DNA of 64,000 nucleotides, taken from IMG/VR virus record IMGVR_UViG_3300025087_000036, positions 87,987 to 151,986 of that record, one strand, 5' to 3'. Positions 15,748 through 51,595 of this stretch are shown one piece after another (position 1 is the stretch's first letter; each line of letters begins with the position of its first letter). The position numbers and the translations under genes were made by a program. The notes under the pieces are model-generated. The model ran no database searches, had not been told where the DNA came from, and saw only the letters and a list, made by a program, of their open reading frames with translations. Origin of the DNA: a virus.

Positions 15748-15828
15748 AAAAAGAAAGGTTCTAAAATGAAAACTTGGGTTGTTGAACAATACGAAACTGC
15801 CATAGGTTAAAACATGATGGAGAATAAC

Positions 15829-16980
15829 ATGCTAACTAAACTAGAAAAATTGGGAAAACCCTTTCACATATATGCTAATCTGGAAACCTTAGATCCAAAT
15901 GCTCTAAACCAATTTATTGGTGTTATGGAATTAGATTGGGTTGTTAGAGGGGCTTTGATGCCAGATGCCCATGTTGGGTATTCATTACCCATAGGGGGTG
16001 TTGTGGCGACAAGAGAAATGATCTCTCCGCAATTTGTCGGCTACGATATTGGGTGTGGGATGTGTGCTACCAAGCTAGACACTTCCAAGGAAGACATTAT
16101 CGCTAATGCAGATAACATCTTCAACGAGATCTATAAGATTGTCCCCGTTGGGTTTTCTCATCACCAAAAAGAACAAGCCTGTGGTTGGGATGATTCTACC
16201 ATAGAGGATTTTTCTCCGCTGGCAACGGGGATCTTCAAGGATTGTGAAGCCTTAAGGCAAGTCGGAACCCTTGGCGGTGGGAATCACTTCATAGAAATTG
16301 GCTACGATGAAAACGATAGCTGTTGGATTATTATTCATTCTGGGTCCAGGGGGTTCGGTTGGAAGGTAGCTCAAGCATACATGAAACTTGCTTCCCCAAG
16401 TGGAAAGGCAAGTGAGGGACATTTTGGATTCAGAACTGATTCCACCCTTGGTGAAGAATACATTGCCGATATGAATGGGTGCTTGGAATTTGCTTTGACC
16501 AATAGACTATGCATCAATCGTTCCGTCTATGCAGCCATAAAGAAGTTTGTTGACTGTGTACCAAGCCAAGATGATGTAAGCTTCATCAACAGAAACCACA
16601 ACCATGCCGTCTTGAAGAACGGATTGTGGATTCATCGCAAGGGTGCTACTCATGCAGAGGAAGGAATGATGGGTGTCATTCCAGGCAACATGAGGGATGG
16701 TTCTTTTATCGTTGAAGGTAAAGGAAACCCAGAATCATTGTGGTCAAGTTCTCACGGTGCCGGGAGGGTGTCCAGCAGAAAGGCTATCAAGGAATCAACC
16801 AACGTGGTTGACTTTGAAGTTGCAATGAGAGGGATCAAGGCAAAGGTAAATGCCGATACCCTTGATGAATCCCCATTCGCATACAAGAACATTTTCGATG
16901 TGATGTTGGCGCAAAAGGATCTTGTGGAAATCGTGCATAGGGTACGTCCATTAATCAATGTTAAGGGGGTAACAAAGTGA
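15829..16980 (+). CDS. rtcB: RtcB-type tRNA-splicing/repair RNA ligase
   Basis: 383 aa, close to the family length. RtcB signatures are all present: MPDAHVGYSLPIGGVVAT, VGYDIGCGM (metal-binding Cys), GGGNHFIEI, HSGSRGFG, RKGATHAEEG and SSHGAGR (guanylylated His). The enzyme joins 2',3'-cyclic phosphate or 3'-phosphate RNA ends to 5'-OH ends using GTP and Mn2+. In a tRNA-rich phage it would mend tRNAs cut by host anticodon nucleases. I prefer ATG 15829 (GGAG at 15819) over 15814. Its stop overlaps the next GTG. Confidence 0.95.
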   Translation: MLTKLEKLGKPFHIYANLETLDPNALNQFIGVMELDWVVRGALMPDAHVGYSLPIGGVVATREMISPQFVGYDIGCGMCATKLDTSKEDIIANADNIFNEIYKIVPVGFSHHQKEQACGWDDSTIEDFSPLATGIFKDCEALRQVGTLGGGNHFIEIGYDENDSCWIIIHSGSRGFGWKVAQAYMKLASPSGKASEGHFGFRTDSTLGEEYIADMNGCLEFALTNRLCINRSVYAAIKKFVDCVPSQDDVSFINRNHNHAVLKNGLWIHRKGATHAEEGMMGVIPGNMRDGSFIVEGKGNPESLWSSSHGAGRVSSRKAIKESTNVVDFEVAMRGIKAKVNADTLDESPFAYKNIFDVMLAQKDLVEIVHRVRPLINVKGVTK

Positions 16981-28800: not shown

Positions 28801-29951
28801 CTGACTTTAATCCGATAACCATTCATTGGACGGAACATCCATTATACTCTGAAAACTTGGAGTGGATTTGTGCCAGTTGTGGTAATAGACAATTGACAGG
28901 ATCTATGTTCAATGGTGAAGTGCTTTGTGAGATTTGTGCTGAATCTAGTTTTCATCCTACCTCATCTTGGTATGAAAACCAAAAGAGACAGTTAGCTTCT
29001 GACAGGCTTATCGCTCAAGAGTTGGATATGGACTTTCTTGGTTCTGGGGATATGGTTATTGAGAACAAGTATATACTTGAAGCAGAGAAAGAATGTAGAA
29101 AACCTCTATATGAAGGCTTTGAAGTGTTGCAGTACCATAAAAAGGAAGATGTTCCTTTCAGTATGTTCTATAAGAATCTTTGGGTATGGGAAGACCCCAT
29201 TGAAGGCGAAGAGTATTTAATATGTGCGGACGTAGCTAGGGGAGATTCTTCTGATTACTCTGCTTTTCATGTTATCAATTCTAGTGATGAGCAAGTTGCA
29301 GAGTACAGGCATAGACTTCCTCCAGATGAATATGCTGGGTTGTTGTATGATGTTGGAACTCTCTATAACAATGCTTTGATTGTTCCTGAAGCTAATAGCA
29401 TTGGATATGCAACTTGTCTTAAGCTAGTTGACCTTGATTATAAGAACTTATTCTATTCACAAAAGGGAATGTACAGCAAAGAGAAAATGAAAAAGATGAA
29501 TGATCACCCAACCAAACATGATGTCTCTGCTATACCTGGGTTTCAGACAACGAATACTTCTAGGCCACTTATTATTTCTGCATTGGAAGAGGGTATTAGA
29601 GTTGGGAGCTTTAAGATAAGATCTACCAGGACAATTTCAGAGCTTAGGACTTTGGTTTGGATAAATGGAAAGCCTCAAGCTATGCCAGGGTATAATGATG
29701 ACTTGTGTATAGCTGGGGGGATTGGATTGTTTGTTAAGTCTACTCACCTTAAAGACAGATCAAGTGGAAGGGAAGCTGTGGTTGCTGCCTTGAAAGCTAT
29801 GCAAGGGGAAAGTAATCTAGCAGAGAATTCTCTTCCTACAAATAGGGGGTTCATGAATTCTAGGGCAAACCCCAATCCTTGGGTACAGATTGGTCCAAGG
29901 GGAGAAAGAGAAAGTTTGACTTGGTTGATTGATAGAAAACGCAAAGGATGA
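25848..29951 (+). CDS. 17: Terminase large subunit (gp17-like) with intein and zinc ribbon
   Basis: 1367 codons; removing the intein (residues 190-964) leaves 592 aa, normal for gp17. ATPase: Walker A KSRQLGIST (63-71), Walker B LLVIDEAAA (154-162), coupling STPKG formed by extein joining. RNase H-like nuclease acidic residues in ICADVARGDSSDY, VPEANSIG and GYNDDLCIA. The protein pumps DNA into proheads and cuts concatemers. Between the domains an extra CASC...CEIC zinc ribbon is inserted, absent from T4 gp17. Preceded by the late-type hairpin; portal follows after 3 bp. Confidence 0.95.
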   Translation: MPALSKQQMTEEIIKCSASPEYYLLNYGVVRDPKGGYVKFQLYDFQKDCLREFQEHRFNIILKSRQLGISTIAAGYIAWLVAFHKATEVAVVANKQVNSSGFVRKIKLILKKSPTWLVPKLLLDNQGSIELINGSRVIAHATTDDAARSESLTLLVIDEAAAIPTNKVEDLWAAAYPTLSMGGAGIVISCVTPDTYIYTDRGIKQIGDYANLDLLGEQTVASYGVLGKDKLRTGSIAYNNGVCKTKIISTRSAKLEGSLNHKLWAFSNKVGRYDWFQLRDLEVNDFVAVQYGMNVWGNNDTLTDFRLTPDLSTNTTLHDNFLPTVITPDLAYLLGVYIANGSMSIINSQQANELIGGYVSFVSITQDMKDRFTLENVDIQTHTDNIFTTSKNFIEFLLYLGFKPDTKNTQRSIPPRLLELSGGNLGALVNGIFDCKGFSRADRGIVSIGLSSKVLIDQIRIILDNIGILSEYGAVNGRNSYFQYDTIQYRLTLNQSESKLFYELIGFNSQEKQDNQNVLPMLCELPGILLQSQAMRSPIENENQIITSQTWHDSCYSKFCANQIEQNSPSKNHTRNFAVKNHTIKPNIKNCDGEFENHNVLLAAAPHVKKLTGTELEGIGKLHLLPILPGTLLARDENFDDLESGDVKTLTCRDADNQKLGTKIASQNLVKLLTTKTEISGEKHTIDQNNQKPIRGKMNCFDVLYDKKLTTGFTISQKESIINQTFSKNRANYGLPDKLLTDENASQNQFECGSSKNRAKQNSVQPGFGTELAIARNVPENFEVENENQLEKKCRAANQSNITQTLSSKNPSESFTKSNIVKSSSHDVIPNGVYYCKCLFDLLPFGTWTLIKKWGLNINGVLNKKSLYKTHHTSRQNLLKLKNICLQNTTIPNKLTIELDKILSPNVKWEPIRSITVSSNPTVDFSLPSTKNSHKISSEISESDINMISFWDHSVIYNSILGHQTPKGVGNWYHKQWTLAVNKESDFNPITIHWTEHPLYSENLEWICASCGNRQLTGSMFNGEVLCEICAESSFHPTSSWYENQKRQLASDRLIAQELDMDFLGSGDMVIENKYILEAEKECRKPLYEGFEVLQYHKKEDVPFSMFYKNLWVWEDPIEGEEYLICADVARGDSSDYSAFHVINSSDEQVAEYRHRLPPDEYAGLLYDVGTLYNNALIVPEANSIGYATCLKLVDLDYKNLFYSQKGMYSKEKMKKMNDHPTKHDVSAIPGFQTTNTSRPLIISALEEGIRVGSFKIRSTRTISELRTLVWINGKPQAMPGYNDDLCIAGGIGLFVKSTHLKDRSSGREAVVAALKAMQGESNLAENSLPTNRGFMNSRANPNPWVQIGPRGERESLTWLIDRKRKG
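26415..28739 (+). mobile_element. Large intein in the terminase, 775 residues
   Basis: Begins with Cys (GIVIS-CVTPDTYIY), block B GSLNHKLWAF, LAGLIDADG-type endonuclease motifs LLGVYIANGSM and LVNGIFDCKG, and C-terminal block F/G VDFSLPST...HSVIYNSILGHQ followed by Thr. Ending in Gln is known for some inteins. Splicing restores IVIS-TPKGVGNW, the gp17 motor motif. It is roughly 300 residues longer than usual because of a repeat-rich insert (27421-28325). Confidence 0.9.
27421..28325 (+). repeat. In-frame cluster of palindromes and dispersed repeats inside the intein
   Basis: Core 17-mer TAGCAAGAATCGTGCCA occurs at 28025 and 28109, with variants at 27554 and 28168 and inverted at 27734. Two long palindromes, 27497-27532 and 28151-28184, share the design TGGCA-N5-CTTGCTATAGCAAG-N5-TGCCA. 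GTTAAA/TTTAAC palindromes at 27669, 27786, 27855. Direct 17-mer TTGAAAATGAGAATCAA at 27463 and 28198; inverted TGCCCGGCAT at 27421 and 28226. The reading frame stays open throughout but the translation is low-complexity. Confidence 0.8.
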
Positions 29952-31843: not shown

Positions 31844-32653
31844 GTGAACTTTGGAACAATACTACAATCAGTAACAAGTGTCTGTGCAAAGAAAGCATTG
31901 GCAAACCAGGAACAGGACGCTAAGATGTTAGCTAAGACCTTCATAAATTTTGTGAACATCAAGGAAGTATTACACAAGCAATTCAATGTGTTCACACGAT
32001 TGGAATCATCATATATGGCCGACAGAAGACTAGCAGAGATGTTTGTCAATGAAACGGTATCCGCATTGGATGGAATGAACTTCAAGGATGTTCAAGCTTA
32101 CAATACTCTTCTTGAATCTAAGTGTAAGATACCAGCTATGAAGTCTTCTCAATTGAACATGGATATTGGAACAGTCATAAGGTATCGGTTGGATAAGGAA
32201 TCAGTTGACCCAAAGAGATATGTTGAATCATTCGATAGAGTTGTTCAGCATGTGAACTCATTGCATGAGGACAAAGATCCCTATGAGAACTTGAGTGAGA
32301 TGGTTGCCAATTCGGAACTGAAATTCTTGAAGCCAAAGCATGTTATTAGAATTGCCCTTGGAAAATTCAACAGCAAATACTCAAACCAATTGAATGAAGA
32401 TGACCGCAAGGTTTTCTTTTTGTTGAAAGAGAATGATCAAGGCAAGATAGCTGATAAACAAAAATTGATGATAGCGGAAATAGAGTCCCTATTGGTGAAA
32501 CTTGGTGGATCAATGGGCGAAGAGTTGTCTAGTAAGGCAGCAGCAGCCACCAAGCAATGCAAAGAGAACCAAACAGCAGATGGCCTATTGGATACATATG
32601 AGTTGGTTTGTGAGTTAAGAAATCTAAGGGAGAAAGACAATGAAGAAAAGTGA
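31844..32653 (+). CDS. Unknown virion-region protein, 269 aa
   Basis: GTG start after AAGGAGCGTATGTAA. All-helical (QSVTSVCAKKALANQEQDAKML..., EIESLLVKLGGSMGEELSSK). Position between portal and prohead protease, where T4 carries gp67/gp68 prohead core genes, hints at a prohead core or internal protein; similarity itself not visible. Overlaps the next gene by 14 bp. Confidence 0.7.
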   Translation: MNFGTILQSVTSVCAKKALANQEQDAKMLAKTFINFVNIKEVLHKQFNVFTRLESSYMADRRLAEMFVNETVSALDGMNFKDVQAYNTLLESKCKIPAMKSSQLNMDIGTVIRYRLDKESVDPKRYVESFDRVVQHVNSLHEDKDPYENLSEMVANSELKFLKPKHVIRIALGKFNSKYSNQLNEDDRKVFFLLKENDQGKIADKQKLMIAEIESLLVKLGGSMGEELSSKAAAATKQCKENQTADGLLDTYELVCELRNLREKDNEEK

Positions 32654-32876
32654 ACTGAAAAAAATTATCAAGGAAACCTTGAATGAGGATGTTATGGATG
32701 GATACAAAAAGGTAAAGCTACCGATAAGCTTTCCTTTTACATGGGACGCAAGAGATTATCACAAATTTGATGATATAAAGAATCTACTACAAAAGCTAAC
32801 TAAAAAGAAAATTCTTTCTAAAGAGATTGAGGCAGACAATGTGTTTCCTTATAAAGCAATATTTTATGTTAAGTAA
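32640..32876 (+). CDS. Putative internal head protein 1 (shared leader)
   Basis: 78 aa. Leader MKKSELKKIIKETLNE (1-16) with protease-type sites I-K-E12 and L-N-E16, then a small alpha/beta domain (YKKVKLPISFPFTWDARDYHKF...). Eight genes here share this leader. I infer capsid targeting and removal by the gp21-type protease. Lies next to the protease and scaffold genes. Confidence 0.7.
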   Translation: MKKSELKKIIKETLNEDVMDGYKKVKLPISFPFTWDARDYHKFDDIKNLLQKLTKKKILSKEIEADNVFPYKAIFYVK

Positions 32877-33970: not shown

Positions 33971-35650
33971 ATGAACCAAAAACTACTCATAACAGAATGG
34001 TTTGAACTAGATGTTGGTGCTGACATTTTACAAGAGATTGCAGACAACCCAAGCAAACCAGTAATAATCAAAGACAAGCTTCTACAAAAAGCCAACGTGA
34101 AAAACCACAATGGTAGGGTCTACCCAAAAGAGATCTTAGCCAGAGAGGTTAAGAAGTATTCACACATAGTAAAAGATCGTAGGGCCATGGGGGAATTAGA
34201 TCACCCAGATTGCAATATATCAAAAAACTTTGATGTATTGTCAGAATTTGGTTGGAAACCATTTTCTGAGTTAAAACTAGGGGAGAAGATATATGCAATC
34301 AATGAAAATAACAGGTTAGAATTAAATGAAATAGAAAGAATTATCGATGAACCATATAGCGGAAACGCTTATAAAATAAGAGGCAGAGGAATAGATTCTT
34401 CGTTTACCCCAACCCACAAATTGTTACTAGAAGCAAGGTATGGAAAAAGGGAGTATGTCACAATTGAGGAAATACACAACAATAGAGGCAAATACAATAA
34501 ACATAAAATATTAAAATCTAATTTTGATTGGTTTGGTAACAACCCAGATTTCATTGAAATTCCAGGTGTGTCAAAAGAAAAATATTCAAATAGATTTACG
34601 AATAATGTTGAGGAACCACTTAAAATAGACACAATGACATTTGTTCAATTCCTAGGAATTTGGCTCGCAGAGGGCCACACCCGCATAGGGGGTGGATCTT
34701 ATTTATCAGTAATCACACAAAAATCTGGTGTTAAGGCTGATTTGATCAGAGAAATGTTAAGCAAATTCCAAATTGAAATAAAAGAATACAATAAGGGGAA
34801 TGATAAAATAGTATTCTCAATCCAAGATATAAGATTGGCAAAATATTTGGATATATTGGGAAAGTGCCATGAAAAATATATCCCTAGTGATATCAAACAA
34901 CTTGATCCAATTTATCTATCTGAATTGATTGATTGGTTTATCATGGGAGATGGAAGAAAACAAACACACCAACATGGAATTAGACAAAATTTGTTTTCCA
35001 CCTCGAAAAGGCTTGTTGAGGATTTACACGAATGTCTTATCAAAATTGGTGGGTCTGGAAATTGGCAAGAAATAATAACCAAGGATGATTATATGTTTGC
35101 TGATCATCTAATAGAGGCCAAAAATAAACGACCACTATATCAGTTAAACATATCCACAACAAATGGTATATATTTGGATGAAAGGTTCTTAAAGATAGAA
35201 AAAGTAGAACACAAGGGAAATATATATTGTCTAACAGTTAAGAATGGAAACTTTTATATGAAGGAAAATGGCAAAGCATTTCTTACAGGAAACTCGGCAA
35301 TAATTGAATTAAAAAATGTTTCACACTTAGTAACTGATATTTATATGCGAGATGAAGAGGTTAGGGGATCACTGGAAATTTTGAACACACCCCCAGGGCA
35401 GATTCTAAAAAACCTTATTCAGCAGGGTGTGAAGATCGGAATATCGTCTAGGGGAATTGGATCACTACAGCAAGAGGCTGAAATAAATGTGGTTCAAGAT
35501 GACTTCGAACTCATTGCTTTTGACGCAGTTTCGTCGCCATCCACTCCAGGCGCATATTTAGTAGAGAGTGTTGGAAAAAATGTTACGGACAGATACAATG
35601 GACTACGCAATATCCTTCATGGAATATTGAAAGATTCATACTTTAAGTAA
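33971..35650 (+). CDS. 21: Prohead protease (gp21-like) with intein
   Basis: 559 codons; the extein is 198 aa, matching gp21 (212). Catalytic His in GELDHPD (residues 74-80) and Ser in GISSRGIGS, plus NHNGRVYPKEIL and ELKNVSHLVTDIY. It is a serine protease that cleaves scaffold, core proteins and capsid N-termini after [LI]-x-E. The intein interrupts right after the catalytic His motif. Targets here probably include both capsid proteins and the leader proteins around it. Confidence 0.94.
   Translation: MNQKLLITEWFELDVGADILQEIADNPSKPVIIKDKLLQKANVKNHNGRVYPKEILAREVKKYSHIVKDRRAMGELDHPDCNISKNFDVLSEFGWKPFSELKLGEKIYAINENNRLELNEIERIIDEPYSGNAYKIRGRGIDSSFTPTHKLLLEARYGKREYVTIEEIHNNRGKYNKHKILKSNFDWFGNNPDFIEIPGVSKEKYSNRFTNNVEEPLKIDTMTFVQFLGIWLAEGHTRIGGGSYLSVITQKSGVKADLIREMLSKFQIEIKEYNKGNDKIVFSIQDIRLAKYLDILGKCHEKYIPSDIKQLDPIYLSELIDWFIMGDGRKQTHQHGIRQNLFSTSKRLVEDLHECLIKIGGSGNWQEIITKDDYMFADHLIEAKNKRPLYQLNISTTNGIYLDERFLKIEKVEHKGNIYCLTVKNGNFYMKENGKAFLTGNSAIIELKNVSHLVTDIYMRDEEVRGSLEILNTPPGQILKNLIQQGVKIGISSRGIGSLQQEAEINVVQDDFELIAFDAVSSPSTPGAYLVESVGKNVTDRYNGLRNILHGILKDSYFK
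34211..35293 (+). mobile_element. Intein in the prohead protease, 361 residues
   Basis: Starts Cys (HPD-CNISKNFDVLSEFG), block B FTPTHKLLLEA, LAGLIDADG endonuclease motifs FLGIWLAEGHT and LIDWFIMGDGRK, and C-terminus FYMKENGKAFLTGN before Ser. Penultimate residue is Gly instead of His. Normal intein plus homing endonuclease length. Splicing joins GELDHPD to SAIIELKNVSH. Confidence 0.92.
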
Positions 35651-36819: not shown

Positions 36820-38352
36820 ATGGGAATGAAACTATTAAAATCAGGGTTGGTGGGGAACATCCAAACCAATCAACTGAAAGAACAAAGAATGAAGGTTGTT
36901 AATAGATGGGAAAAGACAGGTCTTCTTGAGGGACTAGAAGCCCAAAAGAAAACCAACATGGCCCAACTATTGGAAAACCAAGCTGGTGCTTTGTTGAAGG
37001 AAGCGGACAACTCAACTTCTAACATAGCTGGGTTTGATATCATTGTGTTCCCAATGGTGCGTAGAGTTTTCTCTCGCCTATTGGCAAACGATATTGTATC
37101 GGTTCAACCATTGAACCTACCTAGTGGATTGTTATTCTATCTTGATCATCAAGTGGAGACAGTTACTACAGGTGCCAGAGGAACCTATGCAAGCGTGTAT
37201 GATGCACACTATGACAATGGTGGGCACAACTATTCATTTGCTACAGGGGCCACAACCTATGGTGCATGGGCAAATGTTGGTGGAGATAACTATGTAACTT
37301 TAACTTATAGTGGTAGCGAGGAATCTCTTGCTTCATTGCAAATTGAAGTTATCTCTGGTATTGGTGCAACTGTAACAGGTGTTACTCACTTTGCTATTGA
37401 TCCACAAACCTGGACCGCTGGGTTGTTTGCTAACAACCAAATCTTGGTTAAGGTTAATGATAGCGGTTATACTGGTACTAACGTAGCCTACGTTGATTGC
37501 GTAGCTAACTCTGCTAGAACTTCATACACAGTGTATGGAGATTTAGAAGGTAGCTCTAACATGGCAGAAGTGAAGTTGATCGTAACTTCTACAACTGTAA
37601 GTGTTACCAGCAGAAAGATGAAAGCTCACTGGACCCCAGAATTGGCACAGGACTTGGCTGCATACCACAGCTTGGACGCCGAAGCTGAATTGACTGCTTT
37701 GTTGAGTGAGGAACTTGCAGCAGAAATCGACCGCGAAATCATTCGTGACTTGATCCGTGTTGCTCCTTACCAAACAAGCTGGTCTTACGATAGAACAGCT
37801 TCGATAACCAGGACAGATGGTACAACCATTCCTGGCGATCCTGCAAGCGCATATGTTACCCAAAAGGAATGGAACCAAACTCTGTTGACACAGGTTAACA
37901 AGGTTAGCGCCCAAATCCACAAGGCAATGTTGCGCGGTGGTGCAAACTGGATTGTTTGCTCCACTGAGGTTGGATCGGTTATGGAAGACATCGAGAAATT
38001 CCACGCCGTTTCCGAAGCCGACACCGAGCAATACAACATGGGTATCGAAAAGATGGGAACCCTATCTTCAAGGTACACCGTTTACAAGGATCCTTACCTA
38101 CCTGCTCAAATTTGTTTGATTGGGCACAAGGGAAGCAACTTCATGGATACTGGATATGTGTATGCTCCATACATTCCATTCCAGCTAACTCCTGTAGTCC
38201 TGGATCCAGATGACTTCACACCAAGGAAGGGTATTATGACCAGATACGCTAAGAAAGTTGTTAACAACAAGTATTACGGTATGGTTAGGGTTATCTTCCC
38301 AACAAGCTACACTTTGATTAATGGTTCAAGCACCAATGTTTCGAACTTCTAA
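36820..38352 (+). CDS. 23: Major capsid protein (gp23-like)
   Basis: 510 aa. N-terminal propeptide ends in ALLKE61-ADNSTSN, a predicted prohead-protease cut (L-x-E/A). HK97-fold landmarks: VFPMVRRVFSRLLANDIVSVQPL, ELAQDLAAYHSLDAEAEL, ANWIVCSTEVGSVMED, and C-terminal YGMVRVIFPTSYTLING. A TATTTATG sequence (36815-36822) overlaps the start codon and so cannot serve as its promoter. A strong terminator follows. Confidence 0.95.
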   Translation: MGMKLLKSGLVGNIQTNQLKEQRMKVVNRWEKTGLLEGLEAQKKTNMAQLLENQAGALLKEADNSTSNIAGFDIIVFPMVRRVFSRLLANDIVSVQPLNLPSGLLFYLDHQVETVTTGARGTYASVYDAHYDNGGHNYSFATGATTYGAWANVGGDNYVTLTYSGSEESLASLQIEVISGIGATVTGVTHFAIDPQTWTAGLFANNQILVKVNDSGYTGTNVAYVDCVANSARTSYTVYGDLEGSSNMAEVKLIVTSTTVSVTSRKMKAHWTPELAQDLAAYHSLDAEAELTALLSEELAAEIDREIIRDLIRVAPYQTSWSYDRTASITRTDGTTIPGDPASAYVTQKEWNQTLLTQVNKVSAQIHKAMLRGGANWIVCSTEVGSVMEDIEKFHAVSEADTEQYNMGIEKMGTLSSRYTVYKDPYLPAQICLIGHKGSNFMDTGYVYAPYIPFQLTPVVLDPDDFTPRKGIMTRYAKKVVNNKYYGMVRVIFPTSYTLINGSSTNVSNF

Positions 38353-38371: not shown

Positions 38372-38402
38372 AGAGGAAACAAGAAATTGTTTCCTCTTTT
38401 TT
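38372..38402 (+). terminator. Intrinsic terminator after the major capsid gene
   Basis: GAGGAAACAA-GAAA-TTGTTTCCTC, a perfect 10-bp stem with GAAA tetraloop, followed by TTTTTT. It separates the abundant capsid transcript from the endonuclease gene; TATAAT at 38413 may restart transcription. Confidence 0.9.
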
Positions 38403-38458
38403 GTCTTTGTGCTATAATTATACTTGATGGTGTAATATCGTTCAGAAAGGCGAAAATT

Positions 38459-39772
38459 ATGGTATACAAGCACGGGTGTAAAATGTGTGGGATAGATTTT
38501 GAGACAAAGAAAAAGACAAGCAAATTTTGCTCAAAGGTTTGTTTATCAAAAAACAATGTGAAGGCAACACAAATAAAACAAGAGAAAATATGCACAATTT
38601 GTAACAAACCATTTTTAGGAAAATCAAACCAAAAATATTGCTCACCAAAATGTGCCAGAAAAGCAAACAATGAATCTTGTATGAAGATAGTTTGTTGTAA
38701 AATTTGTGGAAATGAATTCAAAACCAGACACCATAAAACACAGAAGTGTTGTTCGCCAGCTTGTGGAAATAAACTTAAGTCAAAATCAAATACCATAAAG
38801 AAAATATGCAAAAAATGCGGAGAGGAATTCTATGTAAAAAATAGTAGAGATAACAGATATAATGTAACGTATTGTTCGATAGATTGTTATGGAAAAACAC
38901 ACCAATCTTCTTATGAACACGAAATAAAATCAATATTGGAAAGTAGTGGTATTAATAATATTGTTGAAAGGTACAAACCAGATTGGTTGTCCAGAAAGGA
39001 AATAGACTTATATTTACCGGACCATAAAATCGGGGTAGAATTCAATGGCATATATTGGCATTCAGAAAGTGCTGGCAAAAATAAGGGATATCACTTCAAT
39101 AAATCAAAATTGTGTGCTGAAAATGGGGTGAGATTAGTCCACATATTCGAAGATGCTTGGGTTAGTAGAAGGGAAGCAATTATGAAAAGATTGTTTAATA
39201 TGATACCCAACAATGACAAGATATATGCAAGAAATTGTGTAGTCAAGTTTGGCAATAAACAGGAGGTTGTGAAATTTGTGGGAAAATACCATACCCAGGG
39301 AAATATAAGTTTTGAATACAGCGTGAAACTCCTATGCGATGGAGAAATTGTTTCTGTTTTAACAATAGGAAAACAAAGAAAGATTCTTGGTTCCAACCCA
39401 GAAGAAGGAAAATTTGAAATATTGAGATATTGTTCTAAAAAAAGAGTGGTGGGTGGCTTTTCAAAAATGCTAAAATATTTCATAAAATCAATAAACCCAA
39501 AAGAGATAACAACCTTTATGGATTTGGATTGGAATTTCGATACTGCAAATAATGTTTACGCAAAAAATGGGTTCGCACTTTCCCATATTTCTCCACCAAA
39601 TTATTGGTATGTCAGCAAAGAAATGGTAAGGAAACATAGAATCCAGTGTAGAAAGTCAAAGCTGGTGGATAGTGGGTATGATAAAAACAAATCTGAATCA
39701 GAAATAATGAAAGAACTTGGGTATTGGAAGGTGTGGAATTGTGGATCTGCCAAATTCATAATGTCATTTTAG
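38459..39772 (+). CDS. Homing endonuclease, Vsr/PD-(D/E)XK-like, with zinc fingers
   Basis: 437 aa from ATG 38459. Four C-x2-C...F-C-S-x2-C fingers (CKMCGIDFE...KFCSKVC and similar, residues 7-130), then EIDLYLPDHKIGVEFNGIYWHSE, the Vsr-type catalytic core of phage homing endonucleases, then LVHIFEDAW and a C-terminal domain of 200 residues found in long members. Inserted between the two capsid genes, a classic target for homing. Confidence 0.88.
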   Translation: MVYKHGCKMCGIDFETKKKTSKFCSKVCLSKNNVKATQIKQEKICTICNKPFLGKSNQKYCSPKCARKANNESCMKIVCCKICGNEFKTRHHKTQKCCSPACGNKLKSKSNTIKKICKKCGEEFYVKNSRDNRYNVTYCSIDCYGKTHQSSYEHEIKSILESSGINNIVERYKPDWLSRKEIDLYLPDHKIGVEFNGIYWHSESAGKNKGYHFNKSKLCAENGVRLVHIFEDAWVSRREAIMKRLFNMIPNNDKIYARNCVVKFGNKQEVVKFVGKYHTQGNISFEYSVKLLCDGEIVSVLTIGKQRKILGSNPEEGKFEILRYCSKKRVVGGFSKMLKYFIKSINPKEITTFMDLDWNFDTANNVYAKNGFALSHISPPNYWYVSKEMVRKHRIQCRKSKLVDSGYDKNKSESEIMKELGYWKVWNCGSAKFIMSF

Positions 39773-39835: not shown

Positions 39836-41716
39836 ATGATCGAAGTTAGTATCAGTGAGAAGTATAAAGCAGAACTGTCTAGCCTAAGAGGGGTTTCCAA
39901 AGATATCCAAGCAGAATGGAACAAAGTATTTCCAGGAGTGGATAGCAAGTCTGCAATCCTATTGGAAAACCAAAGAAGATTTTTGAATGAAGTAAACTCA
40001 ACCACCGATCTTGGTGGAGATTTAGATGGTGGAACTCAATCGCAATTTCCAATGATGCCAATCGTTAGGAGAATCATACCAACAGGAATTTCTAGGAAGC
40101 TTGTTTCAATCCAACCGATACTGTATCCAACAGCTATGGTGTTTTACTATGATCCAAAAATAGAAACAGCAAAGGGAAGCTCTGCCTACATTTCTTTAAT
40201 TGAAGCAAGAAGCGGTCATTCAAATTATGATATCTCTCTTGGTGAGGCAACTTCCGTAAATGGGGCTATGACTGCCATAACGGCAGCACAATATTTGTCA
40301 GGTGCTTCTTTTACTGTTCCCTATTCGGGTGGGGTGGGTAGTCTTTCTTCACTTCAAGTGTTCCTGGAGTATGACCAAACTGGATTGAGTGGACGAAATG
40401 GAATTGTAACATCCTCCCCAACAAGTCTGTTTACTGGGATGACATTCGATGATAACGTGGACGCGGGAACCAACTATCTTATTGTAAGCACGGCAAACCA
40501 AACTGGATGGTGTCAGTTTCAATTTACTTCTCTCACCCCAAATATTACATCATACACACTTAAAAGTAGTTTAGCTTTGCCACCAACATTAATAGAGTTG
40601 TGTGGTTCAACAGACTCAACATCTTGGTCACAACTAGATTATCATTCTGGATTATCTCTTGTTGCAAACACAACATACAGGTACAACTTGGCAACAGAAT
40701 CAACGGGGAACACTTACTTTAGATTCAATTTCAGTGGGGCAATTGGAACTCTTGTCACTGAATTAGAATTGTTAGGTTATGAAGCTTTACCATATGCCGT
40801 ATCTCCACAAACATGGGGTCAAAATTTGTTTGCAAACAACCGATTGAGTTTAATAGCAACAACAGATGAAACATGGTTGTCTGGAAGCAATCGGACAGCC
40901 TACACAAGATACAATACATATGCTTCTAATGAAGCTGTGTCTGGAATGCAACAAGTCCAATTGAACATAACCGGAACCTCAATCTCTTGTAACACAAGAA
41001 AGCTCAAGGCAAGTTGGACAGAAGAGCTAGACCAAAATTTGAAATCGTTCTTTGGTATCTCTATGGTTGATGAAGTGGCTAACCTCATGGCAACAGAGAT
41101 AGCTTTGGAGATAGACAGACAAGTAATATCGGACCTGATAAACATTGCACCTTATCAAACCAGTTGGCACTATAGCCCAAGGTCTGCCGTAACTAGGATT
41201 GATGGAACTGTTATTCCAGTTGAAGCCTCAAGTGCTAGAGTAACCCAAGAGGAATGGAATCAAACTTTGCTCATAGAAGCCAACAAAATAAGTGCTATGA
41301 TAGGTCGCGCAAACTTCAACCACGAGGCTAATTGGATTGTTTGCTCGGCAAAGGTTGGGAGTGTTCTAAGAGACAACATTGACTTTGTGCCAACCTCAAA
41401 GGATTATAACCCACACGATGATTATATGATAAGTTATGCTGGGAGGGTGAATTGCAAATATGATCTTTACATAGATCCGATGTTGCCAGATGATATTTGC
41501 CTCATTGGATATTTGGGGGATAATGATTACGATTGCGGATACATATATGCACCATACATTGCCCTTCAACCAACACCAAAAGTTGTCGATCCAAGCACCT
41601 TGTATGATTGGAAATTTGGTATAATGAATAGGGCAGCAAAGAAAGTTGTGAATAACAAAAAGTATGGTTTGATAAGAGTCACTTTCCCAAGTGATTATGA
41701 AGTGATAAATGGATAG
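39836..41716 (+). CDS. 24: Second capsid protein, probably vertex (gp24-like)
   Basis: 626 aa paralog of the major capsid protein: shared PMVRRI, VSIQP, RKLKASWTEELDQNLKSFFG, ANWIVCSAKVGSVL, YIYAPYI, AAKKVVNNKKYGLIRVTFPSDYEVING. Predicted protease site FLNE52-VNST. It carries about 110 extra residues (roughly 180-300, TSLTPNITSYTLK...TGNTYFRFNFSG) that look like an inserted beta-sandwich. Role as pentamer/vertex is inferred from T4; it could also be a decoration variant. Confidence 0.85.
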   Translation: MIEVSISEKYKAELSSLRGVSKDIQAEWNKVFPGVDSKSAILLENQRRFLNEVNSTTDLGGDLDGGTQSQFPMMPIVRRIIPTGISRKLVSIQPILYPTAMVFYYDPKIETAKGSSAYISLIEARSGHSNYDISLGEATSVNGAMTAITAAQYLSGASFTVPYSGGVGSLSSLQVFLEYDQTGLSGRNGIVTSSPTSLFTGMTFDDNVDAGTNYLIVSTANQTGWCQFQFTSLTPNITSYTLKSSLALPPTLIELCGSTDSTSWSQLDYHSGLSLVANTTYRYNLATESTGNTYFRFNFSGAIGTLVTELELLGYEALPYAVSPQTWGQNLFANNRLSLIATTDETWLSGSNRTAYTRYNTYASNEAVSGMQQVQLNITGTSISCNTRKLKASWTEELDQNLKSFFGISMVDEVANLMATEIALEIDRQVISDLINIAPYQTSWHYSPRSAVTRIDGTVIPVEASSARVTQEEWNQTLLIEANKISAMIGRANFNHEANWIVCSAKVGSVLRDNIDFVPTSKDYNPHDDYMISYAGRVNCKYDLYIDPMLPDDICLIGYLGDNDYDCGYIYAPYIALQPTPKVVDPSTLYDWKFGIMNRAAKKVVNNKKYGLIRVTFPSDYEVING

Positions 41717-46722: not shown

Positions 46723-47496
46723 ATGTCAAGAGATGGAAGCTATGGGTTAGCAAAAATACCATATGAAAAAGTTTGTGAATATTGCGGGCAACCATTTACA
46801 CCAAAATCCTGGCAATACAGGAACCAAAGGTTTTGTTCCAAACCCTGCATGTATACTTGGAGAAAGTCCAACAGTAAAGAGAACCGAATTTGTAAATGTG
46901 GGATTGCTTTTGAAACCTACAAAATGTCCCCCAAAAAATATTGTTCAAACTTCTGCCCCCAAAAACATAAAGATCAAGGTAAATTTGTTTCTGATTGGTT
47001 GATTGAAAACAACCCAATGAAAAACCTAGAAAGTAGAAAGAAAATATCTGAAAAATTGAAGGGGAGAAATGTTGGGTTTGGAGCGGAGGGTAAAAGATGC
47101 AGGCACACTAAAGAATCAAAGAGAATAATGGGTTGTAAAAGAATCGAAAAAATGAAAACCAATGGCTATAAGGTTTCAAAACTAGAAACCGATGTTTGTG
47201 TGCATTTGATTGAAGCTGGAATAAAAATAGAAACTCAATTTAGAGTGGAAAATTTTTTGTATGACATATACATCCCAAACAAAAATACATTGATAGAAGT
47301 AAATGGTGATTATTGGCATTGTAACCCAAGTGTTTATAAAGAACCAAGAGATAAAATACAAGTGATAAAGGTTGAAAGAGATGAAAGAAAGACAAAATGT
47401 GCAATAGATCATGGATATAGACTTTTGGTGATTTGGGAAAGTGATATAAAAAGCAAGGGCATCCAGCATATCCTGGAATCAAGTGATATTTATTGA
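46723..47496 (+). CDS. Vsr-like homing endonuclease
   Basis: 257 aa. Zinc fingers CEYCGQPFTPKSWQYRNQRF-CSKPC and CKCG...YCSNFC, then NIMKNLES-type NUMOD3-like helix (NNPMKNLESRKKISEKLKG), then catalytic DIYIPNKNTLIEVNGDYWHCNP and LLVIWESDI. D and E of the Vsr fold are in D-x-Y-I-P and IEVNGDYWH. Inserted after the sheath gene. Confidence 0.88.
   Translation: MSRDGSYGLAKIPYEKVCEYCGQPFTPKSWQYRNQRFCSKPCMYTWRKSNSKENRICKCGIAFETYKMSPKKYCSNFCPQKHKDQGKFVSDWLIENNPMKNLESRKKISEKLKGRNVGFGAEGKRCRHTKESKRIMGCKRIEKMKTNGYKVSKLETDVCVHLIEAGIKIETQFRVENFLYDIYIPNKNTLIEVNGDYWHCNPSVYKEPRDKIQVIKVERDERKTKCAIDHGYRLLVIWESDIKSKGIQHILESSDIY
47487..47494 (+). promoter_or_regulatory. Candidate late-promoter element TATTTATT
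   Basis: AGTGATATTTATTGAG overlaps the last codons of the endonuclease gene and lies 50 bp before the next gene. It suggests the late promoter of the downstream genes is carried on the end of the mobile gene. Confidence 0.45.
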
Positions 47497-47543: not shown

Positions 47544-47816
47544 ATGAAAAAGTCTGAATTGAAAAAGATCATTCGAGAATGCTTGAATGAGTACGACAAA
47601 AAAGATGTTATCAAGCAAAAGGGACTTGAGTTCCTTGGTGGCAAGAATTATGGAAAGGGTGGAAGAGCTTTGTTCAAATCAATCAATGGGAGATTGGTTC
47701 CTATGAGTGGTCAAGAACAACTCGACTATTTAAACAAGCAAAGAGGAAAGCCAACCAAGAAACCAACAAACAAGAAACAGTTTGGGAAAAAGGTTGTGAA
47801 AGTTGTCGATAAATAA
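47544..47816 (+). CDS. Putative internal head protein 4 (shared leader)
   Basis: 90 aa from ATG 47544 (AAGAGAGAGCA). Leader MKKSELKKIIRECLNEYDKK, then a lysine/glycine-rich basic body (GGKNYGKGGRALFKSINGRL, PTKKPTNKKQFGKKVVKVV). A basic, disordered body is what T4 internal proteins that bind DNA look like. Confidence 0.7.
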   Translation: MKKSELKKIIRECLNEYDKKDVIKQKGLEFLGGKNYGKGGRALFKSINGRLVPMSGQEQLDYLNKQRGKPTKKPTNKKQFGKKVVKVVDK

Positions 47817-48209: not shown

Positions 48210-49013
48210 ATGGATGACGTTATGAAACCCGGCGAAATAAAACCAAAGGGTGGTTCCTCAAGTGTCTTTGACATACCTTTCGATGTGATTGAATTACCAT
48301 CAAAGGGGTTGCTATACAAGACCGGAACATTGGTTGGCAAGAGTAGTGTTGAGGTTCATTATTTGACAGCAAGGGAAGAAGACATTTTGACTTCACCAAA
48401 CTTGCTACAAAGTGGAAAGATGCTTGATGTTCTTATCAGGAGTGTCCTCAAGAACAAGACAATTGACCCAGGTGATTTTTTGCTTGGGGATAGAAACGCA
48501 ATCATCATTTGGTTAAGGTCAACCGGATATGGTGCGGAGTATCCTGTTCAAGTGTTGTGTTCGCAATGCGGAGAGAGGTACGAAAAGGAATTCGACTTGT
48601 CAAAGTTGGAAGTAAGAGAGTTAGCAGAAGACCCAGATAGTGATGGTTTGTTTTCTATGACCCTTCCCCAGACAAACAAGAAGATTAGATTTAGACTCTT
48701 GACAGCAAGAGATGAATCAGAGATTGTTAAGAAGGTTGAGGATATCAAGAAGAAGGTTGGGGGAAATGTTGACCAAACAGAATCCTTGAAGATAAAAGCT
48801 ATGATCAAGGAGGTTGATGGTAACAACGATTTGGCAACCATCACAAGTTTTGTTAGCACCATGCCTGTCAAGGATACCAAGGCATTCAGAAAGTATGCTA
48901 ACTCAATTGAACCTGGAATCATGATGGTCCAGGATTCCACTTGCACCTTCTGTGGAAACGAAACCAAGGAGGTTATCCCCCTACGGGAAAACTTTTTTTG
49001 GCCTGACAGTTGA
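48210..49013 (+). CDS. 26: Baseplate hub subunit (gp26-like)
   Basis: 267 aa. DIPFDVIELPSKGLLYKTGT, VEVHYLTAREEDILTSPNLLQSGKMLDVLIRSVLKN is the conserved N-terminal block of the T4 gp26 family. Two cysteine pairs (CSQCGERY and CTFCGNET) form a zinc site. Acts in hub assembly. Confidence 0.88.
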   Translation: MDDVMKPGEIKPKGGSSSVFDIPFDVIELPSKGLLYKTGTLVGKSSVEVHYLTAREEDILTSPNLLQSGKMLDVLIRSVLKNKTIDPGDFLLGDRNAIIIWLRSTGYGAEYPVQVLCSQCGERYEKEFDLSKLEVRELAEDPDSDGLFSMTLPQTNKKIRFRLLTARDESEIVKKVEDIKKKVGGNVDQTESLKIKAMIKEVDGNNDLATITSFVSTMPVKDTKAFRKYANSIEPGIMMVQDSTCTFCGNETKEVIPLRENFFWPDS

Positions 49014-49194
49014 TGATAAAAAGTATCTCTTGGAAGAGTTGTTCCAGCTAGTTTTTCACGGCAAGTTTAGTTTGTCGGATGCTAGGTTGTTACCTGTTTA
49101 CCAGAGAAAGTGGTTCATAGATAGAACCGTCAATGAGATAGAGAACATAAAAAAGGCAGTTGAAGCTGCTGCCAAAGCTGGAAAGAAAAAATGA
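48952..49194 (+). CDS. Small baseplate-region protein
   Basis: LTVDDKKYLLEELFQLVFHGKFSLSDARLLPVYQRKWFIDRTVNEIE matches a small family found directly after gp26 in T4-like phages (hub assembly, gp51 position). The frame has no ATG; GTG 48952 lies inside the gp26 gene. The true start may be nearer 49000 with a rare codon or by coupling at the gp26 stop. Confidence 0.65.
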   Translation: METKPRRLSPYGKTFFGLTVDDKKYLLEELFQLVFHGKFSLSDARLLPVYQRKWFIDRTVNEIENIKKAVEAAAKAGKKK

Positions 49195-50054
49195 AACATA
49201 CTGAATTGAAAAATTTGATCAAAGAGTGCTTGCTTGAATTCAAATCAGACATGGGAAAGCAATGTGTAATGTTGATGGGACTTCCGGCTTCTGGAAAGAG
49301 TAGTCTTATCAGTAGTGGAATTTTGGGTAAATATATTGCTGGGTTTAAATCATACAGTGTTAGCAATAGTGATGCACAAGTAAAGGCACTTCAATATCAA
49401 AAAGCAAAAGAACACTATGATTACATTGAAAAAAACGTAAAGACACAAAATGATTTTGATGAATTCACACGCTCAACAAGATATGATAACCCATACACAA
49501 AGAGTTCAATTGCACTACCGATAACTTGGGCTTGGTGGAAAGAAAACAAAGACAGTGGACTTAACACCTTTGTCAAGACATTTTTCAAACCATACTATTC
49601 TGTTTATTTTGATATCAGAGAATTAGCAATCAAAATGGAAAAAGATTTGTTTGACTTAAAGATAGTTAAGGCTGGAAATATACTGATCATTGACACAACA
49701 GGAACAAACGTAAAGAAAGCAGCAGAAAGATTCAAGAAAGCAAAACAAGAGGGATACACAACAACAGTTGTATATCTTAGTATTGATCCAGAGTTGTGTA
49801 TATCTAGAGACAATTTCAGGAAACTACATTCTGGCCGTGGAGTTGGAGAGAATGTCATTATGGGTTATGCTAAAGAATTGGCAAAATCTGTTCTGTCATA
49901 CAAGGCTAATGGGGAATCCGCAAATGGTTGGGTAGACAGGATAATAAAATTCAGATGGGTTGGGGGAGCTTCCCCAACAGATGGCAAATTTTCTCTTGTA
50001 TATGATATCAGATATGATGTAAAGAGAAAACTAGAGAAGAAAGGTAAGGTATAA
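49191..50054 (+). CDS. P-loop kinase, zeta-toxin-like, with shared leader
   Basis: 287 aa. Leader MKHTELKNLIKECLLEF, then Walker A GLPASGKSS (residues 30-38), Walker B-like ILIIDTTGTN, and lid region LSIDPELCISRDNFRKLHSGRGVGENVI, like the R-x4-R-x4-GR of zeta toxins and related nucleotide/sugar kinases. ATGA overlap with the preceding gene. The leader suggests delivery with the phage DNA; substrate unknown (UDP-sugar, nucleic-acid 5' end or protein). Confidence 0.78.
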   Translation: MKHTELKNLIKECLLEFKSDMGKQCVMLMGLPASGKSSLISSGILGKYIAGFKSYSVSNSDAQVKALQYQKAKEHYDYIEKNVKTQNDFDEFTRSTRYDNPYTKSSIALPITWAWWKENKDSGLNTFVKTFFKPYYSVYFDIRELAIKMEKDLFDLKIVKAGNILIIDTTGTNVKKAAERFKKAKQEGYTTTVVYLSIDPELCISRDNFRKLHSGRGVGENVIMGYAKELAKSVLSYKANGESANGWVDRIIKFRWVGGASPTDGKFSLVYDIRYDVKRKLEKKGKV

Positions 50055-50055
50055 A

Positions 50056-50307
50056 ATGGGAATATACAGTTCAAAGATGAGTTGTTGGGAGAGACAGAGA
50101 GCAAAATTGGCTCAAGATCATGCCGGGCCAGAAGTGATAGGTGAAACCCCTGGGTTGGCTCCTGTCGAACCAGAGGCAAAGGTGGAAGCAAAGCCCCAGC
50201 CAAAGGCAGAAGATTCAGCAGAGGGCAAGCTAGAGGCTTCTAATGAAGAGCTAGAGGTTGGAAAGCCAAAGAGGCCAACAAAAAAGGTGAAAACCACAGA
50301 AGTTTGA
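50056..50307 (+). CDS. Low-complexity protein, 83 aa
   Basis: MGIYSSKMSCWERQRAKLAQ then a P/E/K-rich disordered tail (VEPEAKVEAKPQPKAEDSAE). One base after the kinase stop, ribosome-binding site AAGGTATAAA. Probably a flexible linker or regulator; unknown. Confidence 0.6.
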   Translation: MGIYSSKMSCWERQRAKLAQDHAGPEVIGETPGLAPVEPEAKVEAKPQPKAEDSAEGKLEASNEELEVGKPKRPTKKVKTTEV

Positions 50308-50333: not shown

Positions 50334-50777
50334 TCAAGTGGGTAGATTTATTTTGCCAATAACTTTCTTTAGGCTTTTGGTTACATTTTTTGTGTTGTTA
50401 TTGATATCGTCTTCCCATATCCTGATTAATTGATAACCATACGCAATAGCAACTCTGTCTTTTATGGAATCATTCAGAATGTTTCTTTTTTGGACTCTGT
50501 TTATGGGGCCGTTTGGATATTTTTTGGGGTTACAATGCCAATAGTCTCCATCTATTTCAATGAGGATCTTTTTGGATGGTATTTGGAAGTCGTACACTTT
50601 GTATTTTTTGTGACCCCTGATTAAACTCACCCAAACAACGGCTTGCTTTTTGTAGTCAACCCCCAATTCAATGAGGATCTTTTCAAACCGTTTTTCTAGG
50701 CTATTTTGAGGACGTTTCCTAAGCAAAACCCTCACACCATAAGCATGAGGGTTCCGTTTTCTTTTGTAAGTCATCAC
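50334..50777 (-). CDS. Vsr-like endonuclease, minus strand, copy 1
   Basis: 147 aa. LEKRFEKILIELGVDYKKQ, YDFQIPSKKILIEIDGDYWHCNPKKYPNGPINRVQ, YQLIRIWEDDI: catalytic domain only, without the zinc finger of its upstream neighbour. ATGA overlap with that gene and close similarity show tandem duplication or a split long gene. Confidence 0.83.
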   Translation of the reverse strand: MMTYKRKRNPHAYGVRVLLRKRPQNSLEKRFEKILIELGVDYKKQAVVWVSLIRGHKKYKVYDFQIPSKKILIEIDGDYWHCNPKKYPNGPINRVQKRNILNDSIKDRVAIAYGYQLIRIWEDDINNNTKNVTKSLKKVIGKINLPT

Positions 50778-51595
50778 TTTATTTTCTCATACAAATCATC
50801 AAAAATAGCATTTGGTGTGTCTACTATATCTTGTTCCCAAAACCTGATTAATGTATATCCCCTTATCTTTGCCAACTTTTCTTTCAACGCATCGTTTATT
50901 ATATTTTCTGTTTGGGTTTTATTTATTGGTCCATCTTGGAAAATAGACGGATTGCAATGCCAATAATCACCATCAACTTCTATCAAAATATTCTTAGATG
51001 GAATACAAAAATCATAAATTCTAACCCCAAAAGTTCCATAAACCAATTGTTTCTGCTTTTCATACTTTACACCAAGCTTATCTAATATAAACTCAAATTT
51101 ATTTTCAAGCCCGCTATATTTTGGATTGCTTTTGTGGAAGTTTAGTATATTGTTTCTGGAAGCAATTAAAGCTTTTCCAGTTTTCTTTTTTCCCTTTGTT
51201 GTTTCTGATATCTTCTTAGATCTTTCTTCTGTGTTCATTCCAACAATGTATTTTAAAACCCTAGGATCTTCTTTGGTTAAACCTTTATTCCAAACCGTTC
51301 TAAGGCCACTTTTATATTGTTCCCTTCTGGTATCAGTTGAGTTTTGAACTGCCTTTGGATTGTGACCCCAATTGTTGTTCACCCTAGATGCATGGCCGCG
51401 AATATATTTGAGAAAGCCCTTGTTTGTCCATGGCAATTTTTCACCACAACCACAAGCGCAAATTGGATAGACCCCATCAAGGTTTACTTTAACATACACT
51501 TCGGACGAATGTATTTTGTGCGCCCTACCAACATGCCTACGAAGTGAATCGTATTTTTCAAATGTGCTTTCGCAAACCCAACATTTATGTTGCAT
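50774..51595 (-). CDS. Vsr-like homing endonuclease, minus strand, copy 2
   Basis: 273 aa. C2H2 finger CWVCESTFEKYDSLRRHVGRAH (split here by family pattern at residues 5-26), CACGCGEKLPW...YIRGH motif seen in phage homing nucleases, NUMOD-like helices, then YDFCIPSKNILIEVDGDYWH and LIRFWEQDI. Own late-type hairpin upstream. Confidence 0.85.
   Translation of the reverse strand: MQHKCWVCESTFEKYDSLRRHVGRAHKIHSSEVYVKVNLDGVYPICACGCGEKLPWTNKGFLKYIRGHASRVNNNWGHNPKAVQNSTDTRREQYKSGLRTVWNKGLTKEDPRVLKYIVGMNTEERSKKISETTKGKKKTGKALIASRNNILNFHKSNPKYSGLENKFEFILDKLGVKYEKQKQLVYGTFGVRIYDFCIPSKNILIEVDGDYWHCNPSIFQDGPINKTQTENIINDALKEKLAKIRGYTLIRFWEQDIVDTPNAIFDDLYEKIK

What the first reader, a model, noticed from the sequence alone, without database searches (positions are those of the whole stretch)
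49191..50054. Zeta-toxin-like kinase carrying the head leader: possible injected effector
Walker A GLPASGKSS, IDTTGTN and SRDNFRKLHSGRGVGENV resemble zeta-type kinases, which can poison cells or disarm nucleotides. No antidote gene is adjacent, so delivery in the capsid rather than expression may control it.
Basis: partly seen in the sequence, partly recalled or inferred. Interest (0 to 1): 0.75.

Follow-up and report, generated by a model that had tools for sequence, protein, structure and literature searches.

The report
Head-tagged kinase in T4-like phage
[quoted passage not shown] what it phosphorylates is unknown.

Summary
The ORF (49191-50054, 287 aa) and its motifs are real. A 21-sequence AlphaFold2 model (pLDDT 82.5) has the zeta-toxin/polynucleotide-kinase fold; zeta (Z 14.2) and CthPnkp (13.7) tie. 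The leader is genuine: 32 bits against a profile of the phage's own leaders, versus 7.8 for the next non-leader Met. Eight leader ORFs lie in the window, two elsewhere in the genome, many in relatives. The phage has a T4-type head set with an S77 prohead protease; leaders carry [L/I]xE, the T4 gp21 cleavage motif, which the capsid proteins also keep.

A 45%-identical kinase in another T4-like phage keeps a different leader. A distant kinase family (386 IMG/VR stretches) has [LIM]xE|G exactly at the leader/kinase junction in all 46 distinct members examined (background 0.5%). In three sister phages the kinase's slot is empty (two) or holds another leader-tagged ORF (one).

Delivery from the head is well supported but not shown. 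'Zeta toxin' as a poison is not supported: no antitoxin, Thr121 missing, substrate open; the polynucleotide-kinase Arg (D+3) is absent too. New variant of a known kind: CTS-tagged T4 internal proteins.

The parts
49191..50054 (+). Leader-tagged zeta/PNK-type P-loop kinase, 287 aa; ATG overlaps the TGA stop of the upstream ORF
49191..49238 (+). Leader MKHTELKNLIKECLLE (residues 1-16); candidate cleavage sites after E12 (IKE|C) or E16 (LLE|F)
   Evidence: profile score 32.4 bits vs 7.8 for next non-leader Met; motif counts
49278..49301 (+). Walker A, GLPASGKS (residues 30-37)
   Evidence: invariant G30 P32 S34 G35 K36 in 21-sequence alignment
49365..49373 (+). NSD (59-61); D61 = predicted catalytic base, at the position of zeta Asp67
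   Evidence: invariant; PMC3062530
49692..49703 (+). DTTG (168-171); T170 at the position of zeta Thr118
   Evidence: D168 and T170 invariant
49806..49838 (+). LID-type arginines R206, R210, R216
   Evidence: R210 and R216 invariant
48952..49194 (+). Small ORF after the gp26-like gene, 80 aa; conserved tail-operon neighbour, not an antitoxin
   Evidence: similar ORF beside gp26 in Microcystis phage Mel-JY01, LR756508 and G001, none with a kinase there
50056..50307 (+). MGIYSS... ORF, 83 aa; right boundary of the variable cargo slot
   Evidence: present at the same place in G001, G004, G005
48210..49013 (+). T4 gp26-like baseplate hub gene, left anchor of the slot
   Evidence: phrog_150 E 3e-14; 51-54% identical copies in G001, G004, G005
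33971..35650 (+). Prohead core serine protease (S77, T4 gp21 family), interrupted by an intein
   Evidence: PF03420 E 7.3e-22, Intein_splicing E 1.1e-4; phrog_207
36820..38352 (+). gp23-like major capsid protein with propeptide site LLKE|A
   Evidence: phrog_138; site conserved in relatives
32640..32876 (+). Leader ORF MKKSELKKIIKETLNE, 78 aa
33441..33680 (+). Leader ORF MKKSELKKLIKEILQE, 79 aa
33684..33968 (+). Leader ORF MKKSELKKIIKETILE, 94 aa
42834..43124 (+). Leader ORF (GTG start) (M)NKSELKALIKEILME, weak HNH-like match
   Evidence: read from sequence; Pfam HNH E 0.05, below cut-off
47544..47816 (+). Leader ORF MKKSELKKIIRECLNE, 90 aa
47835..48194 (+). Leader ORF MKKSELKKIVIECKKE, 119 aa
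60550..60858 (+). Leader ORF MKRSELKSIIIECLLE, 102 aa

Best explanation
The gene encodes a P-loop phosphotransferase of the zeta-toxin/polynucleotide-kinase superfamily, fused at its N-terminus to this phage's own capsid-targeting leader. Inferred mechanism: it is made late with the tail and head proteins; the amphipathic leader docks it on the scaffold core of the prohead; the gp21-type S77 protease cuts the leader after E12 (IKE|C) or E16 (LLE|F); the freed kinase stays in the head and is ejected with the DNA, and phosphorylates a nucleotide-type target before phage genes are expressed. Shown here: the leader and its sharing with unrelated proteins, the kinase fold (predicted) and conserved catalytic residues, the protease gene and an LxE motif in the capsid protein, recurrence of leader-plus-kinase in several phage lineages, and a variable cargo slot. 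Not shown: packaging, cleavage, ejection, activity and substrate. Rough substrate odds (judgement): RNA end or tRNA 35%, NAD-type or other nucleotide metabolite 35%, UDP-GlcNAc (true zeta action) 15%, other 15%.
For: Leader identity 32.4 bits vs 7.8 next; leader on non-homologous ORFs of this phage and six relatives; [L/I]xE at 10-12 in 28/30 and at 14-16 in 25/30 leaders, background 1.4%; L/I-X-E is the T4 gp21 rule and short N-terminal propeptides are the T4 CTS (PMC9026906); S77 protease in the genome and LxE|A kept in the MCPs. The 45% relative L105 keeps a different leader and the same leader/body junction. 46 of 46 distinct Melnitz-type kinases have [LIM]xE|G at the junction, background 0.46%. 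Leader-like N-termini on kinases of LR756508, Atu_ph07 (fused to an ART-like domain), L109, CC2, S13. Cargo slot empty in two sisters, other leader ORF in a third. Fold.
Against: No virion proteomics. The gene lies in the tail operon, not beside head genes. The kinase leader is one of the two least consensus-like, and the residue after E16 is Phe, unlike the small residues after T4-type sites; E12|C13 fits better but is unproved. The amphipathic helix alone would space Leu/Ile and Glu. HTVC008M's kinase has a poorer leader (MIPFILKEG). The 46 junctions come from related sequences, so they are not independent.
Confidence: 0.72

Rival explanations
1. A true zeta toxin: injected or expressed, it phosphorylates UDP-GlcNAc and blocks cell-wall synthesis, weakening or killing the host.
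For: Pfam Zeta_toxin passes the cut-off; zeta/PezT are the top fold matches; catalytic Asp and the Thr118 equivalent are conserved; zeta-like domains fused to MuF were proposed to act at injection (PMC5512222).
Against: Tied with CthPnkp in fold (Z 14.2 vs 13.7) and slightly behind it in the profile search; Thr121 is Asn173 here and Asp in the Melnitz family; no antitoxin; producing cells would be exposed during late expression, though a phage about to lyse its host may tolerate that.
Confidence: 0.13
2. A head-delivered RNA 5'-end or tRNA healing kinase that undoes host anticodon nucleases at the start of infection.
For: Fold and profile similarity to CthPnkp, T4 Pnk and PSTK; closest relative L105 lies near a leader-tagged CCA-adding enzyme and a Thg1 gene.
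Against: The Arg three residues after the catalytic Asp (R41 position in CthPnkp) is Val64 here and Tyr/Phe in relatives; no ligase or phosphatase partner beside it; the phage carries RtcB, which joins 5'-OH ends (general knowledge).
Confidence: 0.28
3. A head-delivered kinase for an NAD-type or other nucleotide metabolite, working with a HIGH-family nucleotidyltransferase to rebuild or rewrite nucleotide pools or defence signals.
For: HIGH-type nucleotidyltransferase in the fetched flanks of 40 of 80 relatives, fused in L075 and L101; L105 has an ORF with an ART-like YRG motif and CTP_transf_like domain two genes on; Atu_ph07 fuses the kinase to an ART-like domain; AvrRxo1, a fold neighbour, phosphorylates NAD (PMC5491322).
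Against: No such partner was found by motif in this phage; adjacency is not pathway; the association is strongest in the distant family.
Confidence: 0.28
4. The leader is not a capsid address but a tail, scaffold or membrane docking helix, or an inhibitory propeptide; the kinase acts late in the producing cell.
For: Several leader ORFs, the kinase included, lie among tail genes. The leader alone does not prove its destination.
Against: Three leader ORFs lie between portal and protease. The [L/I]xE motif matches the prohead protease rule, and leader-like N-termini on non-homologous enzymes recur in other T4-like phages, where T4 has the CTS precedent (PMC9026906).
Confidence: 0.12

Closest known systems
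T4 internal proteins IPI-III and Alt with capsid targeting sequences (CTS; PMC9026906)
   Same: Short N-terminal leader shared by otherwise unrelated proteins, carrying the L/I-X-E gp21 motif, in a phage with an S77 prohead protease
   Different: Leader sequence differs from T4's MKTYQEFIAE; the cargo is a P-loop kinase; leader ORFs are scattered through head and tail operons; packaging not shown
Zeta / PezT toxins (UNAG kinases)
   Same: Fold, Walker A, catalytic Asp, DxTG motif with the Thr118 equivalent
   Different: No antitoxin, Thr121 equivalent is Asn, long insert between residues about 62 and 160, leader present, substrate unknown
Polynucleotide 5'-kinases (CthPnkp, T4 Pnk)
   Same: Fold (Z 13.7 and 11.8), catalytic Asp, LID arginines
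   Different: Arg at D+3 missing; no phosphatase or ligase domain
Zeta-like kinases fused to MuF or in polyvalent proteins (PMC5512222)
   Same: Idea of a virion-delivered zeta-type kinase
   Different: Here delivery would be by a short cleavable leader on a stand-alone kinase in T4-type phages; no MuF domain
AvrRxo1 (zeta-like NAD kinase, PMC5491322)
   Same: Zeta-like fold (Z 12.5) and an injected way of life
   Different: Different delivery system; 11% identity; no evidence here for NAD as substrate

Membership tests
CTS-tagged internal head proteins of T4-type phages | Short N-terminal leader shared by non-homologous proteins of the phage | tested here: met
CTS-tagged internal head proteins of T4-type phages | L/I-X-E cleavage motif in the leader and a gp21-family protease in the genome | tested here: met
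   which Glu is cut is open
CTS-tagged internal head proteins of T4-type phages | Present in the mature head, leader removed, ejected into the host | not testable with these tools
   needs virion mass spectrometry; Atu_ph07 gp053 lies in a virion-protein cluster but the supplement was not readable
Zeta/PezT toxin | Zeta fold with Walker A and catalytic Asp | tested here: met
   fold tied with polynucleotide kinases
Zeta/PezT toxin | UNAG-contacting Thr118 and nearby conserved Thr121 | tested here: inconclusive
   T170 fits Thr118; the Thr121 position is N173; judged by alignment only
Zeta/PezT toxin | Adjacent epsilon/PezA-type antitoxin | tested here: not met
   both neighbours are conserved structural-operon ORFs found without the kinase
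Zeta/PezT toxin | UDP-GlcNAc 3'-kinase activity and toxicity | not testable with these tools
   needs enzyme assay and expression test
5'-OH polynucleotide kinase | Pnk-type kinase fold with catalytic Asp | tested here: met
   4jt2 Z 13.7, T4 Pnk Z 11.8; profile E 1.9e-7 to CthPnkp
5'-OH polynucleotide kinase | Arg three residues after the catalytic Asp (T4 Pnk R38, CthPnkp R41; role from general knowledge) | tested here: not met
   V64 here, Tyr/Phe in relatives
5'-OH polynucleotide kinase | Fused or adjacent phosphatase/ligase as in Pnkp systems | tested here: not met
   single domain; neighbours are tail genes
MuF-fused / polyvalent virion effector | Fusion to MuF or other head/polyvalent domains | tested here: not met
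   287-aa protein; only kinase-type Pfam domains pass their cut-off

The most novel reading that the evidence does not exclude
T4-like phages carry a pre-loaded enzyme kit in the head: a zeta/PNK-type kinase, often with a HIGH-family nucleotidyltransferase and in some phages ART-like proteins, a HAD phosphatase or a CCA-adding enzyme, tagged by phage-specific cleavable leaders (or strung as a polyprotein with internal LxE sites) and injected to repair or rewrite nucleotide, tRNA or NAD pools before host defences act.
Probability: 0.35. Interest if true: 0.82.

Novelty: new variant of a known kind. Interest (0 to 1): 0.62.

Why it matters
It turns a one-gene guess into a testable rule: phage-specific cleavable leaders mark which uncharacterised proteins T4-like phages load into their heads. 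The rule points to a kinase family found in hundreds of uncultured viral contigs, one cultured member of which (phage Melnitz on Methylophilales) has a leader close to T4's CTS. If right, injected effectors could be listed directly from sequence, and an unknown early-infection phosphorylation could be assayed.

Tried and rejected
Single-protein scans of IMG/VR and tblastn of phage records found no relative of the kinase; an alignment query did. A leader-plus-Walker-A DNA pattern in IMG/VR gave zero hits; leaders in other phages differ in sequence, which would explain it. AlphaFold2 without an alignment was useless (pLDDT 35) and was not used. Repeat scans with the two-sequence alignment found only L105 again plus L109 and nothing in prokaryote genomes. 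That 48952-49194 is an antitoxin was considered and rejected. That the tagged kinase is an accident of this one phage was rejected because L105 keeps leader and kinase. PADLOC gave nothing convincing and NCBIfam only a weak bacter_Pnkp match. A plasmid search gave no match.

Full report
Observation. The ORF at 49191-50054 (+) is intact, 287 aa, and holds the quoted motifs. Its ATG overlaps the TGA of the ORF before it. Pfam AAA_33 (4.7e-8) and Zeta_toxin (1.4e-6) both pass their cut-offs. The window is bases 87987-151986 of a 152-kb IMG/VR virus record. The phage is a distant T4-type myovirus: portal phrog_213, head protease phrog_207, gp23-like MCP phrog_138, gp26-like hub phrog_150, gp19 tube.

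Leader. The first 16 residues belong to a leader seen on eight ORFs of the window (32640, 33441, 33684, 42834, 47544, 47835, 49191, 60550) and two elsewhere in the genome. Six relatives with 63-71% identical MCPs were fetched, and leader ORFs were found in four of them (L010, L013, L014, L015). The 30 distinct leaders read MKKSELKx(I/L)IKEC(I/L)xE, and most bodies differ. Scored with a profile built from the others, the kinase leader gets 32.4 bits; the best non-leader Met in the genome gets 7.8; 125,000 random peptides reach 6.7. It is one of the two lowest-scoring leaders of the set.

Cleavage motif. T4 gp21 cuts after L/I-X-E, and 10-19-residue CTS propeptides address internal proteins to the head (PMC9026906). 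The leaders carry [L/I]xE at 10-12 in 28 of 30 and at 14-16 in 25 of 30, against 1.4% in the bodies. The first site is followed by Cys in 20 of 30 and resembles T4's MKTYQEFIAE|A (T4 sequence from general knowledge) in pattern: hydrophobic-I-x-E|small. The second is followed by varied, often bulky residues, Phe in the kinase, so E12 may be the real site. The MCPs of the window and its relatives keep [LIM]xE|[AV] near the expected propeptide end (one close pair aligns with a gap there), an independent hint of this protease's taste.

Relatives of the kinase. Close homologues are rare: one 45%-identical protein, L105, in a 32.5-kb contig. That contig also reads, by inspection, as terminase, portal, gp21-like protease and gp23-like MCP. 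Its leader differs (MNLNIKTVINEVILE|F), but the body starts at the same place. Neighbouring ORFs begin with that phage's own leader-like sequences (MIKLKQLIKEGILE on a CCA-adding-enzyme-type protein, MIKLKEILLTE, MVKLQKILFES); an ORF with an ART-like YRG motif and a CTP_transf_like domain, and a Thg1 gene, lie nearby. A third kinase, L109, starts MKLNLKNLKNLIKEAVEE. LR756508.1 has a kinase (MLKLKDLIKEVFLKE) in a run of about ten leader-like ORFs. In Atu_ph07 the kinase is fused behind an ART-like domain; its N-terminus MKWNDLNEA resembles five neighbours (MKWEQLTE...). It lies in CDS 31-76, a cluster from which 29 proteins were detected in virions (PMC6102473), though gp053 itself could not be checked.

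A distant family seeded from phage Melnitz has 386 confirmed relatives in IMG/VR (80 kept). All 46 distinct kinases examined have [LIM]xE immediately before the conserved G[VL]xDPxIFK start, against 0.46% in the bodies, with leaders of varying length and sequence. These sequences are related and are not 46 independent events, but the leader around the motif varies while the motif does not. Melnitz has T4-like N-termini on a nucleotidyltransferase (MKKFSEIIEA), a HAD-like protein and others. A HIGH-type nucleotidyltransferase motif is found within the fetched flanks of 40 of 80 kinase loci, often with its own leader (MRFKDFIKE|SIIDIPR). In the fused proteins L075 and L101 the same boundary reads LQE|SIIDIPR or LNE|SIIDIPK inside the chain.

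Synteny. Between the gp26 partner and the MGIYSS ORF, sister phages G001 and G005 have nothing, G004 has an unrelated 108-aa leader ORF, and the window has the kinase. This is what an exchangeable cargo slot looks like. It also argues that the flanking ORFs are not antitoxins.

Fold and active site. With a 21-row alignment the model reaches pLDDT 82.5, pTM 0.72. Second-look scores: zeta 3q8x/1gvn 14.2, PezT 13.7, CthPnkp 13.7, AvrRxo1 12.5, T4 Pnk 11.8, PSTK 11.5; rows within 1 are tied. Profile search: CthPnkp 1.9e-7, zeta 4.7e-7, PSTK 2e-6. Invariant residues include G30, P32, S34, G35, K36, N59, S60, D61, D168, T170, R210, R216. D61 sits at the catalytic base of zeta (Asp67; PMC3062530). 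T170 matches zeta Thr118, but the Thr121 position is N173. The Arg at D+3 typical of polynucleotide kinases is V64. So neither 'zeta toxin' nor 'polynucleotide kinase' is earned as a functional name.

Mechanism. Most likely the kinase is late-made, docked in the prohead by the leader, freed by the S77 protease, and injected. Recruitment, cleavage, ejection and catalysis are inferred. The target is open. HIGH-nucleotidyltransferase and ART-like company favours nucleotide/NAD chemistry; Thg1 and the CCA-adding enzyme near the closest relative favour RNA ends. RtcB in the window argues weakly against 5' phosphorylation of RNA ends, since RtcB uses 5'-OH (general knowledge).

Prior work. Zeta-like kinases fused to MuF or in polyvalent proteins were proposed to act during injection (PMC5512222), and packaged ARTs are well argued (PMC9503650). 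The searches made here found no description of CTS-tagged zeta/PNK-type kinases, but the library lacks many subscription papers.

Noticed in passing
window 33971-35650 and 25848-29951: The prohead protease gene carries an intein (Intein_splicing and LAGLIDADG matches inside the S77 domain), and the terminase-like gene holds a LAGLIDADG stretch, probably a second intein.
   Followed up: partly
window 46723-47496, 50334-50777(-), 50774-51595(-), 38387-39772: Several free-standing Vsr/DUF559-type endonuclease genes (likely homing endonucleases) sit between structural genes, two of them just downstream of the kinase on the minus strand (for the first three; the fourth by inspection).
   Followed up: partly
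L075 1111-4653; L101 2197-4611: Long ORFs joining leader, zeta-like kinase, (in L075) PAP2, polymerase-beta-type and HIGH nucleotidyltransferase domains with an LxE|SIIDIPR/K junction inside; possibly a polyprotein cut by the prohead protease.
   Followed up: partly
L021 656-7590 (Atu_ph07 gp053-gp058): Six adjacent ORFs with a common N-terminus (MKWEQLTE-like) and an ART-like YRGM motif, one fused to the zeta-like kinase: a candidate family of Alt-like injected proteins.
   Followed up: partly
L019 24495-32235 (LR756508.1): A run of about ten ORFs of 200-285 aa whose N-termini share an MxLKxLLxE-like leader, in a 484-kb phage; a candidate block of head-loaded proteins.
   Followed up: no
window 39836-41716: A second gp23-like capsid protein, larger than the first, with its own LxE|V site (FLNE|V); possibly the vertex protein.
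   Followed up: partly
window 15814-16980: RtcB RNA ligase (PF01139 E 6e-86), so the phage has an RNA-repair route that does not need a 5' kinase.
   Followed up: no
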